A stretch of DNA of 35,434 nt from Bacteroidales bacterium (GTDB taxonomy: Bacteria > Bacteroidota > Bacteroidia > Bacteroidales > UBA932), in the NCBI GenBank assembly GCA_017454335.1, contig JAFTDE010000053.1, positions 1-35,434 on the forward strand. The letters run 5' to 3'. The translations under genes and the position numbers were made by a program. Below the pieces are notes generated by a model. That model was not told the DNA's origin and ran no database searches. It was given only the letters and a program-made list of their open reading frames with translations. How positions within the stretch are numbered: the first letter of the stretch is position 1; every line of letters starts with the position of its first letter. Of the stretch, positions 998-35,434 are shown in pieces.

Positions 998-1201
998 CCA
1001 TTCTGCAGAAAAAACGATGATTATTCCGCAAAATCGTATCCCGGCACCCCATTCTGCAGAAAAATCGATGAAAATTCTGCAAAACCATGTCCTAATACTC
1101 CACTTTGCGAAAAAATCCACGATAATTCCGCAAAACCGTATCTCGGCACCCCATTTTGCCGAAAAATCGACGAAAATTCCGCAAAAGCAGGCCCCTGCGG
1201 C
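998..1201 (+). repeat. 51-bp tandem repeat, four copies
   Basis: Copies begin with CCA at 998, 1049, 1100 and 1151, giving an exact 51-bp period. Each contains a TTCTGCAGAA- or TTTGC-GAAAA-like palindrome, then a (T/C)GATGA/AA block and (C/T)CGCAAAA. Copies diverge by roughly 10-25 percent, so the array is not recent. There are no unique spacers, so it is not a CRISPR array. Complementary GCAGAA/TTCTGC segments within a unit could form small hairpins. Confidence 0.85.
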
Positions 1202-15262: not shown

Positions 15263-17845
15263 ATGACCATGCGTTCCAGATACCTTGCCCTCCTGTGCGC
15301 CCTCCTGCTGCCGGTCCTCCCGGTCCGCACGGCGGCGCAGGCAGCACAGGACACCACCCGGACGGTTTCCAGCTCGGCCGAAGAGGTCCGCGTCACCCTC
15401 ACCAGCCTGCTGGATGAACTGCGCCAGTCGTACTCGGACGCCTTGATGTCCGATTCCCTGTTGATCAACAACCCGGAACGGCGGGAAGAGATGGCCCTGA
15501 TGGTGCGCTCGGCCGACGAGCTGACCATCCGGCTGTATTCCCAGCGGCCCGACTACACCTTCGACATGGCCTTCGCCCTGGAAAACGTGACGCGGGTGTA
15601 CAATGCCTTCCAGGAACAGATGGCCCTTCCCAGCAACTACCTGACGGACGCCCGCGCGGGACTCACCCGCTACACCCTGCTGGAACAGACCCTGCGGGAC
15701 ATGTACCTGAGCCATCCGGTGGATTCCCTGATATCCGAAGCCGATTCCCTGCTGCTGGCGGAATACACCCCGCCGGAGCCCCTCGGCCAGCAGGACCCGG
15801 AGAATGCGGTGCTGCTGGACAGCTGCCTGTACTATACCGGCGCCCTGACAACCCTGTACGGCAACGACACCTTCATGGCCCTGCAGGACAGCATCTATTT
15901 CGCGGAAACCAAGCAGCGGCTCAAAGAGGCCTACGAATACGCCCAGGCCAGCTATGCCGACAGCCAGAAGAACCGCTACATCGGCGGGAACCTGAACATC
16001 TCCCAGATCATCAAGAACTGGGACACCATCATCCCGGAGATCCGGAATGACCTGTACGTGCGCTACCACGCGGAAGATCCCCTGAATCCCGGCGCCTGGA
16101 ACGGCCAGTACGTGCTCTCCTACGCGAAAAGCATCCTGCTGATCCTGCTGCTGTGCCTGTTGGTAGCCGGAGCGGCCAGCTTCCTGGTGTACAAGTTCGT
16201 GCGTCCGGGCAAGATCCACTCCTTCCGGCCGCTGCTCGCCGCCATCCTCTGCACCCTGCTGTTCATCTTCGGCGTCGCCATCGTCAACGGCAACCAGGAC
16301 AACACCTACTGGCAGATGGCCTACAAGCTGCTGAAGCAGTTCGCCTGGCTGACCCTCGCGATCCTCGTTTCCCTGCTGATCCGCATCCGGGAAGCCCAGG
16401 CCAAACCGTCCCTGATCGTCTATCTGCCGACGCTGGTGCTGGCCTTCACCGCCATCCTGATGCGCGTGATCTTCCTGCCCGCCGGCGTGGTTCCGCTGGT
16501 GTTCCCGCCCGTGCTGCTGGTGTTCATCATCTGGCAGGCCGCAGCCAACCTCCATTACCGCAAACAGGTGGCCCGGACCGACCTGCGCTATCTGTGGGTG
16601 TCCGAGGGCGTCATGCTGGCCGTCTGCATCCTGTCCCTGTGCGGTTTTTCCATGATCGGCGTGCTGCTGCTGACCTTCTGGACCTTCCAGCTGGCCCTGC
16701 TGCACACCATCACCACCCTGTACTACCTGGTGATGCGCTACGCCGAGGTCCGCGTGGCCCGGAGAAAAGCCACCTACCACACGGAGAACCCCCTCCTGCC
16801 CCTGGAAGACAAGAACGCCTTCATCGAGGTCACCTGGCTGTACGACCTGCTGCGGATGGTGGTCGTTCCCCTCATCACCCTGCTGTCCTTCCCGCTGAGC
16901 ATCCAGCTGACCTCCCGCGCCTACCAGCTGTCCCTGACCGGGGAAACCTTCATGAAACAGCCCCTGATCCACTTCAGAGGCCTCGAGTCCATCACGCCCT
17001 TCAACATCCTGCTGGTGGTCGGACTCTTCTTCATCTTCCGCTACCTGATCCACCTGTGCAAGGGCCTGTCCCGGGTCATCAAGCTGCGCAACGTCATCGA
17101 GAAAAAGGGCGACAAGGCCGTCCCCATCAAGGAATCCGAGGTGAACATGAGCCTGACCAACACCCTCTTCTCGCTGATCGGCTGGCTGCTGTACCTGACC
17201 ATCATCTTCGCCATCCTGAGCATCCCGACCGCCGCCCTCACCGCCATCTCCACCGGTCTGGCCGCCGGTATCGGTTTCGCCCTCAAGGACCTGATCAACA
17301 ACTTCTTCTACGGCATCCAGCTGATGGCCGGACGCATCCGCGTGGGCGACAAGATCTCCTGCGACGGCGTGCGCGGCATCGTCAAGCGGGTGAGTTACCA
17401 GACCACCCAGGTCGAGGACGAAGACGGATCGCTGATCGCCTTCACCAACACCGACCTCTTCTCCAAGAACTTCCGGAACCTGAACGCCGGCAAGAACTAC
17501 GAACTGCTGAAGCTCCGCATCGGCATCAAGTACGGGACCAGCATCGCCAAGGCCCGGGACGTCATCCTCGAAGCCCTCGAGCCGCTCCGGACCAAGGATG
17601 CCAGCGGCCGGGACATCATGGACCCGAGTTTCCCGATCGAAGTGCGCTTCGACAGCCTCGGCGACAGCTCCGTCAACCTGATCGTGGCCCTGTATTCCAC
17701 GGTCGAGACGCACTACACCTTCCCTTCGCGCGCCATGGAAGCCATCTACGACGCCTTCTATGCCAACGGCATCGAGATTCCGTTCCCGCAGCGCGACGTC
17801 TATGTCAAATCCGTTCCCGAGAACAAGCAAAGCCCGACACCATGA
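15263..17845 (+). CDS. Large MscS-family mechanosensitive channel (860 aa)
   Basis: A signal peptide precedes a long periplasmic, mostly helical N-terminal region (about 25-285). Several transmembrane helices follow between about residues 290 and 690, then the MscS signature: a Gly/Ala-rich pore helix and cytoplasmic beta domain (TGLAAGIGFALKDLINN, GIQLMAGRIRVGDKI, VEDEDGSLIAFTNTDLFSKNFRN), then the alpha/beta C-terminal domain to about 850. E. coli MscS is 286 aa; this resembles the large MscK/YbdG-like members with periplasmic extensions. It should act as a tension-gated osmotic safety valve in the inner membrane. An ATG at 15269 is an alternative start. The stop overlaps the next ATG by 4 bp, so it heads an operon of glycan-degrading genes. 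Confidence 0.88.
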   Translation: MTMRSRYLALLCALLLPVLPVRTAAQAAQDTTRTVSSSAEEVRVTLTSLLDELRQSYSDALMSDSLLINNPERREEMALMVRSADELTIRLYSQRPDYTFDMAFALENVTRVYNAFQEQMALPSNYLTDARAGLTRYTLLEQTLRDMYLSHPVDSLISEADSLLLAEYTPPEPLGQQDPENAVLLDSCLYYTGALTTLYGNDTFMALQDSIYFAETKQRLKEAYEYAQASYADSQKNRYIGGNLNISQIIKNWDTIIPEIRNDLYVRYHAEDPLNPGAWNGQYVLSYAKSILLILLLCLLVAGAASFLVYKFVRPGKIHSFRPLLAAILCTLLFIFGVAIVNGNQDNTYWQMAYKLLKQFAWLTLAILVSLLIRIREAQAKPSLIVYLPTLVLAFTAILMRVIFLPAGVVPLVFPPVLLVFIIWQAAANLHYRKQVARTDLRYLWVSEGVMLAVCILSLCGFSMIGVLLLTFWTFQLALLHTITTLYYLVMRYAEVRVARRKATYHTENPLLPLEDKNAFIEVTWLYDLLRMVVVPLITLLSFPLSIQLTSRAYQLSLTGETFMKQPLIHFRGLESITPFNILLVVGLFFIFRYLIHLCKGLSRVIKLRNVIEKKGDKAVPIKESEVNMSLTNTLFSLIGWLLYLTIIFAILSIPTAALTAISTGLAAGIGFALKDLINNFFYGIQLMAGRIRVGDKISCDGVRGIVKRVSYQTTQVEDEDGSLIAFTNTDLFSKNFRNLNAGKNYELLKLRIGIKYGTSIAKARDVILEALEPLRTKDASGRDIMDPSFPIEVRFDSLGDSSVNLIVALYSTVETHYTFPSRAMEAIYDAFYANGIEIPFPQRDVYVKSVPENKQSPTP

Positions 17846-26052: not shown

Positions 26053-26125
<73 letters not shown>

Positions 26126-26154: not shown

Positions 26155-26227
26155 TGACCCGTTCGGGGCTCGAACCCGAGACCCCAACATTAAAAGTGTT
26201 GTGCTCTACCAACTGAGCTAACGAGTC
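26155..26227 (-). tRNA. tRNA-Lys (anticodon UUU)
   Basis: A 73-nt cloverleaf on the minus strand. The acceptor GACTCGT pairs with ACGGGTC with one T-G wobble, discriminator A. The D arm has AGCTCAGTTGGTAGAGC. The anticodon stem CAACA/TGTTG closes the loop CTTTTAA with anticodon TTT. The T arm has GGTTCGAGCCC. It is the promoter-proximal gene of the pair; the spacer to tRNA-Lys(CUU) is 29 nt. Confidence 0.95.
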
Positions 26228-33555: not shown

Positions 33556-35015
33556 CCCTTGCGCACCGGATCGCAGGTCAGCTCGACCCCGAGTTTCTTG
33601 AAGATCTTGCGGTCCACCTCGCTCAGCATCACCGTCGAGTGGACCTGACAGCCGCGCAGGGCGGGCAGCTGCTCCAGCGCCCGGCGGCAGTTCTCGTCCT
33701 CCACGCTCAGGATGGACAGCGCGACCAGCACCTCGTCCGTATGCAGGCGCGGATTGTGCCCGTGCAGGTAGGAGACTTTGGTCTGCTGGATGGGCTCGAT
33801 CATGCGCTGCGGGATCAGCTTCACCTCGTGCGCGATGCCGGCCAGGTGCTTGGTGGCGTTCAGGATCAGGGCGGCGCTGGGGCCCAGCAGGGCGCTGGTC
33901 TCCGCCGAGATCAGGGTGCCGTCCGCGAGCTCGATGGCCGCGGCGTTCACGCCCGAATGCTCCTTGCGCTCGCGCGCGGCGACCGTCGAACGGCGGTACT
34001 CGGTCGTGATCTTGGCCTGCTGCATCAGCAGGGAGATCTTGCTGACCTCCGCGTCGCAGCAGTTGCCCAGGGCCAGTTCGCCCAGGGCGTTGTAGTATCG
34101 CCGGATGATCTCCTGGCGGGCCGCCTCGCAGCAGGCTTCCTCGTCACAGAGGCAGTATCCGATCATGTTCACCCCCATGTCGGTCGGGGACTTGTAGGGA
34201 TTCTCACCGTAGATGCCCTCGAACAGGGCATTCAGCACCGGGAAGATCTCGATGTCGCGGTTGTAGTTGACCGCCGTCTTGCCGTAGGCCTCCAGGTGGA
34301 AGGGGTCGATCATGTTCACGTCGTTCAGGTCGGCCGTCGCGGCCTCGTAGGCCAGGTTGACCGGGTGCTTGAGCGGCAGGTTCCACACCGGGAAGGTCTC
34401 GAACTTGGCATATCCGGCCTTGATGCCGCGCTGGTTCTCCTGGTACAGCTGGCTCAGGCAGACCGCCATCTTGCCGCTGCCGGGTCCCGGGGCCGTCACC
34501 ACCACCAGCGGGCGCGTCGTCTCGACATAGTCGTTCTTGCCGAATCCCTCGTCCGAGTCGATCAGGGCCACGTTGTTCGGGTATCCGTCGATCGTATGGT
34601 GATAATAGGTACGGATGCCCAGGCGCTCCAGGCGCGCCCGGTAGGCATCGGCGCTGGCCTGGCCGTTGTAGTGGGTGATCACCCCCGAACTCACCAGGAA
34701 TCCGCGCCCGATGAACACGTCACGCAGGCGCAGCACGTCCATGTCATAGGTGATGCCCAGATCCGTGCGGATCTTGTTCTTCTCGATGTCCAGCGCGCTG
34801 ATGACGATGACGATCTCCAGGCTGTCCTCCAGCTGCATCAGCATCTTCAGCTTCGCATCGGGCTCGAACCCGGGAAGCACCCTGCTGGCATGATGGTCGT
34901 CGAAAAGTTTTCCTCCGAACTCGAGGTAGAGTTTGTCGCCGAACTGCGCGATCCTTTCGCGGATCCGCTCCGACTGAATCTTGAGATATTTCTCGCTGTC
35001 GAACCCGATTTTCAT
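33552..35015 (-). CDS. DUF1846 family protein (487 aa)
   Basis: A full-length cytoplasmic member of DUF1846 (PF08903), a conserved family of about 490-500 aa with solved structures but no settled biochemical role. Recognisable segments are the N-terminal GFDSEKYLKIQSERI, a glycine-rich loop in VTAPGPGSGKMAVCLSQ (about residue 173) that recalls a phosphate-binding loop, and the Cys-containing CLCDEEACCEA (about 282-292). No signal peptide is present. It is the first gene of the minus operon and overlaps the lactonase-like gene by 4 bp, which ties it to sugar catabolism here, though the family also occurs alone in many genomes. I see no convincing consensus promoter in front of it. Confidence 0.9.
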   Translation of the reverse strand: MKIGFDSEKYLKIQSERIRERIAQFGDKLYLEFGGKLFDDHHASRVLPGFEPDAKLKMLMQLEDSLEIVIVISALDIEKNKIRTDLGITYDMDVLRLRDVFIGRGFLVSSGVITHYNGQASADAYRARLERLGIRTYYHHTIDGYPNNVALIDSDEGFGKNDYVETTRPLVVVTAPGPGSGKMAVCLSQLYQENQRGIKAGYAKFETFPVWNLPLKHPVNLAYEAATADLNDVNMIDPFHLEAYGKTAVNYNRDIEIFPVLNALFEGIYGENPYKSPTDMGVNMIGYCLCDEEACCEAARQEIIRRYYNALGELALGNCCDAEVSKISLLMQQAKITTEYRRSTVAARERKEHSGVNAAAIELADGTLISAETSALLGPSAALILNATKHLAGIAHEVKLIPQRMIEPIQQTKVSYLHGHNPRLHTDEVLVALSILSVEDENCRRALEQLPALRGCQVHSTVMLSEVDRKIFKKLGVELTCDPVRKG

Positions 35016-35136
35016 AACGGGAATCTAAGTTACAAATATTCCTCGAAACCGGCAAGCAAAGCGTAAAAATTGCAAAAATCGGACAAAAACAAACCTTTTA
35101 CACCCCAATTTGAACAATGTTTCGTTTTTGTCTGCC

Positions 35137-35144
35137 TACCTTTG
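35137..35144 (+). promoter_or_regulatory. -7 promoter box in front of the structured leader
   Basis: TACCTTTG matches TAnnTTTG. A TTTG at 35109-35112 is 24 bp upstream, longer than the usual 19-21, so only the -7 element is convincing. Transcription would begin near 35150 and run through the hairpin region. Confidence 0.5.
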
Positions 35145-35164
35145 CATTGAGGATTATTCCGCTA

Positions 35165-35296
35165 TTTAACCTAAAACAAAAACTGCCCCAATAGTTGGTT
35201 TATGAATGGTTAAGTCCGGGCCAATCAATTTCGAAAAGGGGCAAGGCCCGGAAGGTTGCTAAATAGCATGCAGGCGTGGCTGTGAAGTCACGCCTG
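35165..35296 (+). ncRNA. Candidate structured RNA leader with loop-loop (kissing) pairing
   Basis: Hairpin C: TTTAACC (35165-35171) pairs with GGTTAAG (35208-35214), including one U-G. It encloses a small AACT/AGTT hairpin (35181-35184 / 35193-35196) whose loop contains GCCCC (35185-35189). Hairpin B starts at the next base: TCCGGGCC (35215-35222) pairs perfectly with GGCCCGGA (35245-35252), and its loop contains GGGGC (35238-35242), complementary to the loop of C. A weak TGCT/AGCA hairpin (35257-35268) and a perfect 8-bp hairpin E (CAGGCGTG 35271-35278 / CACGCCTG 35289-35296) follow. No poly-U follows E, so it is not an ordinary terminator. The element sits about 40 nt before a transposase-like gene. 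I do not recognise a known riboswitch class. Confidence 0.5.
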
Positions 35297-35337
35297 TCTT
35301 ATCCTGAAAAAAGTTGACTCACAAAGAAGAGTTAACA

Positions 35338-35434
35338 ATGTACCAGTTACACACAGAGAAACAGTTAAAGTACTTCGATGAAGTGATACGCCTTCATTAC
35401 GAACTCGGTTATGGCGAAGACCGAATCGAACAAA
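35338..35434 (+). CDS. Helix-turn-helix protein, probable transposase N-terminus (truncated by window end)
   Basis: Only the first 32 codons are visible (ATG at 35338-35340; the protein starts MYQLHTEKQLKYFDEVIRL). The sequence EVIRLHYELGYGEDRIEQ has the look of the first helices of an HTH domain that opens insertion-sequence transposases or related DNA-binding proteins in Bacteroidales. This is a resemblance from memory. The local GC content is clearly lower than in the metabolic genes, as expected of a mobile element. It lies downstream of a structured leader and a -7 promoter box. Confidence 0.5.
   Translation, partial: MYQLHTEKQLKYFDEVIRLHYELGYGEDRIEQ

What the first reader, a model, noticed from the sequence alone, without database searches (positions are those of the whole stretch)
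35137..35337. Possible new structured RNA with a kissing-loop upstream of a mobile-element-like gene
Two directly adjacent hairpins (C, 35165-35214; B, 35215-35252) carry complementary loop sequences, GCCCC (35185-35189) and GGGGC (35238-35242). A third perfect 8-bp GC-rich hairpin (35271-35296) follows. All lie in AT-rich sequence after a TAnnTTTG box and before an HTH/transposase-like start. Several perfect GC-rich helices plus an interleaved pairing in 130 nt is hard to explain by chance. It could be a riboswitch, a leader controlling transposase expression, or a guide or structural RNA of the element.
Basis: partly seen in the sequence, partly recalled or inferred. Interest (0 to 1): 0.75.

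Follow-up and report, generated by a model that had tools for sequence, protein, structure and literature searches.

The report
Orphan structured RNA cut by IS3
Next to a bacterial gene there is what looks like a small, tightly folded RNA with its own promoter; no relatives of it were found, and the transposase beside it belongs to a mobile element that landed at its end, so it is probably not that element's control region.

Summary
The helices are real and at the stated coordinates: B 35215-35222/35245-35252, C 35166-35171/35208-35213, the loop pairing TGCCCC 35184-35189/GGGGCA 35238-35243, a last hairpin 35271-35296. A GC-rich pseudoknot inside a closing helix occurred in 0 of 4000 shuffles and 0 of 954 real tiles of similar GC (criteria set afterwards). 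The nested fold alone is unremarkable (z -2.76). The reading as a transposase leader fails: the transposase start belongs to an IS3-family element whose left terminal repeat begins at 35295, right behind the last hairpin, and of 28 flanks of such ends only this one carries the pseudoknot. So the structured region lies outside the element. There is no Rfam match. A covariance model found no convincing homologue in 345 genus, 398 family and 393 order genomes (overlapping samples, own genome included), so covariation is untestable. Best reading: an orphan, promoter-driven, pseudoknotted small RNA (or the leader of a gene lost behind the insertion) whose terminator-like hairpin lost its tail to IS3. 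Expression, function and conservation are not shown.

The parts
35082..35132 (.). Imperfect 17-nt inverted repeat (35082-35098/35116-35132) whose right arm lies just before the -7 box; possible operator
   Evidence: function inferred
35137..35144 (+). TACCTTTG, match to the Bacteroidetes -7 box TAnnTTTG; RNA start expected near 35148-35152
   Evidence: consensus as quoted in PMC7366714; start site inferred
35161..35168 (+). P1 5' strand GCTATTTA, pairs with 35260-35267
   Evidence: pair probability 0.61-0.89 for 7 of its pairs
35166..35171 (+). Helix C 5' strand TTAACC (pairs with 35208-35213), exclusive with the inner part of P1 (35168-35172/35253-35257)
   Evidence: pair probability 0.10-0.13 for C
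35184..35189 (+). Pseudoknot/kissing strand TGCCCC, pairs with GGGGCA 35238-35243
   Evidence: pair probability 0.07-0.10 in a pseudoknot-free ensemble
35215..35222 (+). Helix B 5' strand TCCGGGCC, pairs with 35245-35252
   Evidence: pair probability 0.69-0.90
35238..35243 (+). Pseudoknot/kissing strand GGGGCA in the loop of helix B
35245..35252 (+). Helix B 3' strand GGCCCGGA
35260..35267 (+). P1 3' strand TAAATAGC
35273..35294 (+). Terminator-like hairpin (GGCGTGGC 35273-35280/GTCACGCC 35287-35294), ending at the insertion point; no T-tract remains
35295..35434 (+). Left 140 bp of an IS3-family insertion sequence: terminal repeat TGTCTTATCCTGAAAAAAGTTGACTC at 35295-35320, OrfA from ATG 35338, cut by the contig end
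33552..35015 (-). Divergent neighbour gene, DUF1846 protein (PF08903, PF20921), 487 aa

Best explanation
A small non-coding RNA gene older than the insertion. RNA polymerase starts at TACCTTTG (35137-35144) and makes a roughly 145-nt RNA (about 35150-35294). An 8-bp helix P1 closes a domain in which hairpin B's loop (GGGGCA) pairs with an upstream strand (TGCCCC), giving a compact GC-rich pseudoknot. A GC-rich hairpin follows 3-5 nt after P1 and ended transcription. An IS3-family element then inserted exactly at the base of that hairpin and separated it from its T-tract. Shown: the pairings, their excess over chance, the promoter-box match, the boundary of the insertion sequence. Inferred: transcription, the pseudoknot in solution, termination, the former T-tract, and the class (stand-alone small RNA acting by base pairing or protein binding, rather than a leader).
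For: Helices and their excess over shuffles and real tiles. TAnnTTTG box ending 16 nt before P1. No open reading frame of 80 aa or more overlaps 35137-35294 on either strand (shorter frames were not listed). Terminator-like hairpin of -13.2 kcal/mol right after P1. Only six alternative pairings of 6-7 bp, G-U allowed, were found between the hairpin region and upstream sequence, so no clear antiterminator. Insertion-sequence boundary at 35295.
Against: No convincing homologue, hence no covariation. Nested-fold z only -2.76. In a pseudoknot-free ensemble the loop pairing has probability 0.07-0.10, because there it competes with helix B. The terminator scan finds none, no T-tract being left. The -33 element is weak. 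No expression data.
Confidence: 0.45

Rival explanations
1. Cis-acting leader (riboswitch, attenuator or protein-binding leader): P1-closed aptamer followed by an expression-platform terminator for a gene now separated by the insertion and beyond the contig end.
For: Order promoter box, closed pseudoknot domain, terminator-like hairpin. Helix C and the inner part of P1 exclude each other, a possible switch.
Against: No clear antiterminator pairing; no Rfam match; not found again in the genomes sampled; downstream gene unknown.
Confidence: 0.25
2. Antitoxin-like or element-associated RNA (type III toxin-antitoxin pseudoknot, retron or bridge-type RNA) of a lost or nested mobile element.
For: Pseudoknot plus terminator-like hairpin before a lost gene; the single occurrence among genomes sampled fits a mobile, lineage-specific locus.
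Against: No tandem repeats of the pseudoknot, no partner gene visible, no second copy in the own genome, nothing beyond chance in viral, plasmid or phage collections.
Confidence: 0.1
3. Coincidental pairing in a degenerating intergenic region; no RNA function.
For: Nested z not extreme, criteria chosen after the fact, no conservation found.
Against: 0 of 4000 shuffles and 0 of 954 real tiles reproduce the enclosed pseudoknot; a promoter box and a terminator-like hairpin frame it.
Confidence: 0.17
4. Leader or RNA of the downstream transposase.
For: It lies directly 5' of the transposase start and on the same strand.
Against: The insertion sequence begins at 35295; 27 of 27 other flanks lack the structure; the full copy L255 has 43 bp before the OrfA ATG.
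Confidence: 0.03

Closest known systems
Canonical intergenic small RNAs of Bacteroides (for example GibS, PMC7366714; passages seen)
   Same: Intergenic, promoter box and terminator-like hairpin as described for such RNAs there
   Different: No sequence comparison with GibS was made; pseudoknot inside a closing helix; single known occurrence; terminator tail missing
SAM-II long-loops riboswitch (RF01726) and other H-type pseudoknot riboswitches
   Same: Interleaved a-b-a'-b' pairing (topology of SAM-II recalled); RF01726 is listed for Bacteroidetes and marine samples (PMC2864571, passages seen)
   Different: No Rfam match to it even at E up to 5; extra closing helix P1; no downstream gene seen
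Type III toxin-antitoxin RNA antitoxins (recalled)
   Same: Pseudoknot RNA followed by a terminator
   Different: No tandem repeats, no toxin gene seen
IS3-family insertion sequences
   Same: The downstream element: terminal repeats, OrfA plus OrfB with integrase core on the related copy L255
   Different: Does not include the structured RNA

Membership tests
Any Rfam 15 family | Score at or above a family's gathering score | tested here: not met
   Window: only two tRNAs, 26053-26125 and 26155-26227. 35000-35434 at E up to 5: mir-787 (19 bits, gathering 57) and SNORA17 (17.2, gathering 29) only.
Transposase leader of the downstream insertion sequence | Lies between the ends of the element and recurs with its copies | tested here: not met
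   Left end at 35295; the structure is absent upstream of 27 of 27 other ends examined.
IS3 family (the downstream element, not the RNA) | Inverted terminal repeats, two consecutive ORFs, OrfB with integrase core | tested here: met
   On the related copy L255, 84% identical to the window over 108 bp: 26-bp repeats, 19 of 26 alike by eye, OrfA 124 aa from its ATG, OrfB 270 aa with PF00665/PF13683. The window holds only the first 140 bp; its 32-aa OrfA start has no Pfam match. Target duplication not established.
Riboswitch or regulatory leader | Conserved aptamer upstream of functionally related genes | tested here: not met
   No convincing homologue in the genomes sampled; ligand binding not testable.
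Type III toxin-antitoxin RNA | Tandem repeats of a short pseudoknot (recalled) | tested here: not met
   No tandem repeats in 35016-35300.
Type III toxin-antitoxin RNA | Toxin gene directly downstream (recalled) | not testable with these tools
   The original downstream sequence is beyond the contig end.
Structured RNA supported by covariation | Compensatory changes among homologues | not testable with these tools
   No homologues found. Of 9 order-level model matches (best E 0.0037 per genome) 7 have helix B deleted, and 2 (L242, L246) align through it with non-standard pairs. Two family-level matches keep a B-like hairpin (L096 and L097, E 0.16 and 0.39) but not the loop pairing.

The most novel reading that the evidence does not exclude
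A new class of compact pseudoknotted RNA (P1-closed, 6-bp loop pairing next to an 8-bp GC-rich stem) that is lineage-specific and mobile, for instance the RNA half of an unknown RNA-protein system whose gene was separated by the insertion.
Probability: 0.12. Interest if true: 0.65.

Novelty: new member of a known kind. Interest (0 to 1): 0.3.

Why it matters
It would also be an example of an insertion sequence landing exactly behind a terminator-like stem. And it shows how a contig break inside a repeat can make an unrelated transposase look like the gene that a leader RNA controls.

Tried and rejected
Transposase leader: rejected by the insertion-sequence boundary.

Homologues (sample sizes include the window's own genome; samples overlap). 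BLASTN of 35016-35292 in 61 genus genomes, E up to 10: beside the window, the matches listed (the list was cut) are 15-39 bases, best E 0.00114 over 21 bases; I looked at that one (L033) and judged it chance. BLASTN of 35140-35434 in 199 family genomes: 28 others match, 26 in the insertion-sequence part and two elsewhere (L028, which looked like coding sequence by eye, and L029, in a terminator-like hairpin by eye). BLASTN of 35076-35294 in 295 order genomes: 15 others with 19-33-base fragments at scattered positions, best E 7.2e-4; these were not opened. Covariance model R1, built from the window sequence alone: 16 others at E up to 1 in 398 family genomes, best 0.075; 9 others at E up to 0.1 in 393 order genomes, best 0.0037; none but the window at 0.2 or below in 345 genus genomes. 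These three runs used stricter filters, which lose weak matches. I gave 10 of the 16 family loci to and saw 8 alignments; 9 of 9 order loci were aligned. I judged all chance. L096 and L097 keep a B-like hairpin without the loop pairing; L100 and L102 are the same intergenic place in two genomes, read and set aside.

A strict core pattern gave 0 viral contigs. Plasmids: 1 record, phages: 45 records, all weak (the rows shown have E 5-6) and covering 13-19% of the query.

Synteny: 110 of 151 genus genomes hold the DUF1846 gene. Of these I printed up to 420 nt upstream of it for 29 relatives (two have under 100 nt). Several kinds of neighbour occur, some shared among relatives; by eye none resembles this RNA.

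Other side of the insertion: the assembly (78.8% complete) holds one match to the element's right end, on C52, ending near 16403 by my placement. Its flank CACCGCC does not repeat the last 3-4 bases before 35295, the size of duplication I recall for IS3. The frame it interrupts has no visible continuation on the window side (by eye). So it is probably another copy.

Literature: (listings and abstract starts) and passages of PMC2864571 and PMC7366714. Nothing matching this RNA was seen; this is not a full search.

Full report
OBSERVATION. P1's inner extension (35168-35172/35253-35257) and helix C exclude each other.

CHANCE. Of 2000 dinucleotide shuffles of 35150-35297, 48 had at least three helices of 7 bp or more, 4 had a GC-rich interleaved pair and 0 had both. 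On 35150-35294 only, a GC-rich pseudoknot occurred in 7 of 4000 shuffles, and one enclosed by a helix of 7 bp or more in 0 of 4000. In 954 real tiles of GC 0.38-0.50 from fetched loci the numbers are 1 and 0, and in 242 tiles of the GC-rich window 21 and 1. The thresholds were set after seeing the structure, so these numbers flatter it. Against it: the nested minimum-energy fold of 35150-35294 has z -2.76 on the plus strand and -2.13 on the minus strand (20 shuffles each), and the 12 lowest of 488 tile-strands of the window all reach -3.46 or lower (a larger version, timed out). The z of -4.93 for 35150-35337 includes a hairpin that belongs to the insertion sequence. In the pseudoknot-free ensemble P1 and B dominate (probabilities up to 0.9) and the loop pairing has 0.07-0.10, because nested structures cannot hold it together with B; as a pseudoknot the two do not exclude each other.

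WHAT LIES DOWNSTREAM. BLASTN of 35140-35434 in 199 family genomes gave matches in 28 others; apart from G188 (query 168) and the two unrelated places in G108 and G070, the listed matches start at query 153-157, that is at 35292-35296. Listed next to each other, most of these places show a left end like TGTCTT-NN-CCTGAAAAAAGTTGACTC, often followed by a helix-turn-helix-like reading frame, with unrelated sequence to the left. One genome (G134) holds a full copy (L255): inverted 26-bp ends, 19 of 26 positions alike by eye, 1529 bp end to end, 43 bp from the left end to the ATG of OrfA (124 aa), and OrfB of 270 aa with the integrase core (PF00665, PF13683), that is an IS3-family element. Its left 108 bp match the window from 35295 at 84%. 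The window's contig ends 140 bp into the element, as does contig C39 of G134, which fits an assembly break at a repeat (inference). Among 28 distinct flanks upstream of such ends (loci L001-L031 and L254-L262, up to 4 mismatches in the repeat, duplicates and flanks under 60 nt left out), the enclosed pseudoknot occurs in 1, the window itself. A hairpin ending at the element occurs in 3 (window 9 bp; two others 6 bp, G-U allowed), so there is no clear hairpin targeting. The structured region therefore lies outside the element and, by inference, is older than the insertion.

THE OTHER SIDE. The genome assembly (2.16 Mb, 63 contigs, 78.8% complete) holds one match to the right end of the element, on C52, ending near 16403. 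The sequence behind it, CACCGCCACAAAATTC, does not repeat the last 3-4 bases before 35295 (GCC or CGCC), and it interrupts a reading frame. So it is probably another copy, and I cannot say what followed the RNA.

RELATIVES. No Rfam family matches. BLASTN and a covariance model from the single sequence found no convincing homologue in samples of the genus, family and order (the model runs used stricter filters, which lose weak matches). Of 9 order-level model matches, 7 have helix B deleted and align mainly the AT-rich stretch; the other 2 align through B with non-standard pairs. In the family, L096 and L097 keep a B-like hairpin but lack the loop pairing. The region upstream of the neighbouring DUF1846 gene showed no such RNA by eye in 29 relatives.

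INTERPRETATION. TACCTTTG at 35137-35144 fits the -7 box TAnnTTTG quoted for Bacteroidetes (PMC7366714, passages). A TTTG at 35109-35112 is 24 nt away, further than the spacing I recall, so the -33 element is weak. An inverted repeat, 35082-35098/35116-35132, lies just before the box and could be an operator. From a start near 35150 the RNA would enter P1 about 11 nt later, form the B stem and the loop pairing, close P1 and run 3-5 nt later into the terminator-like hairpin (-13.2 kcal/mol). The terminator scan is negative, as expected if the element displaced the tail. Only weak alternative pairings with the hairpin region were found, which slightly favours a stand-alone small RNA over a switch, but the missing downstream gene leaves this open.

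VERDICT. It is interesting as an orphan structured RNA, not as a new mechanism that the evidence establishes.

Noticed in passing
window 35082-35132: Imperfect 17-nt inverted repeat (82% complementary) between the DUF1846 gene and the RNA promoter box, possibly an operator or a terminator-like hairpin.
   Followed up: partly
window 1016-1160, minus strand: Strongest fold excess of the tiles scanned in the window (z -6.07); the minus-strand reading frame there (893-1411) looks internally repetitive by eye.
   Followed up: no
window 26053-26125 and 26155-26227, minus strand: Two adjacent tRNA genes, the only Rfam matches in the window.
   Followed up: no
L263 near 8404 (G000:C52:16403): A right end of a related IS3-family element interrupts a reading frame starting MRKLEYWLISTEHLNDRLLFKDTEDFRVGMNFVAV.
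   Followed up: partly
L022 near 1503-1563: A sequence of about 61 bp bounded by both inverted terminal repeats of the IS3-like element, MITE-like.
   Followed up: no
L021 1545-2828: A transposase-like N-terminus is fused in frame to an aminotransferase class I/II domain (PF00155); it may be a chimera formed by deletion or a pseudogene.
   Followed up: no
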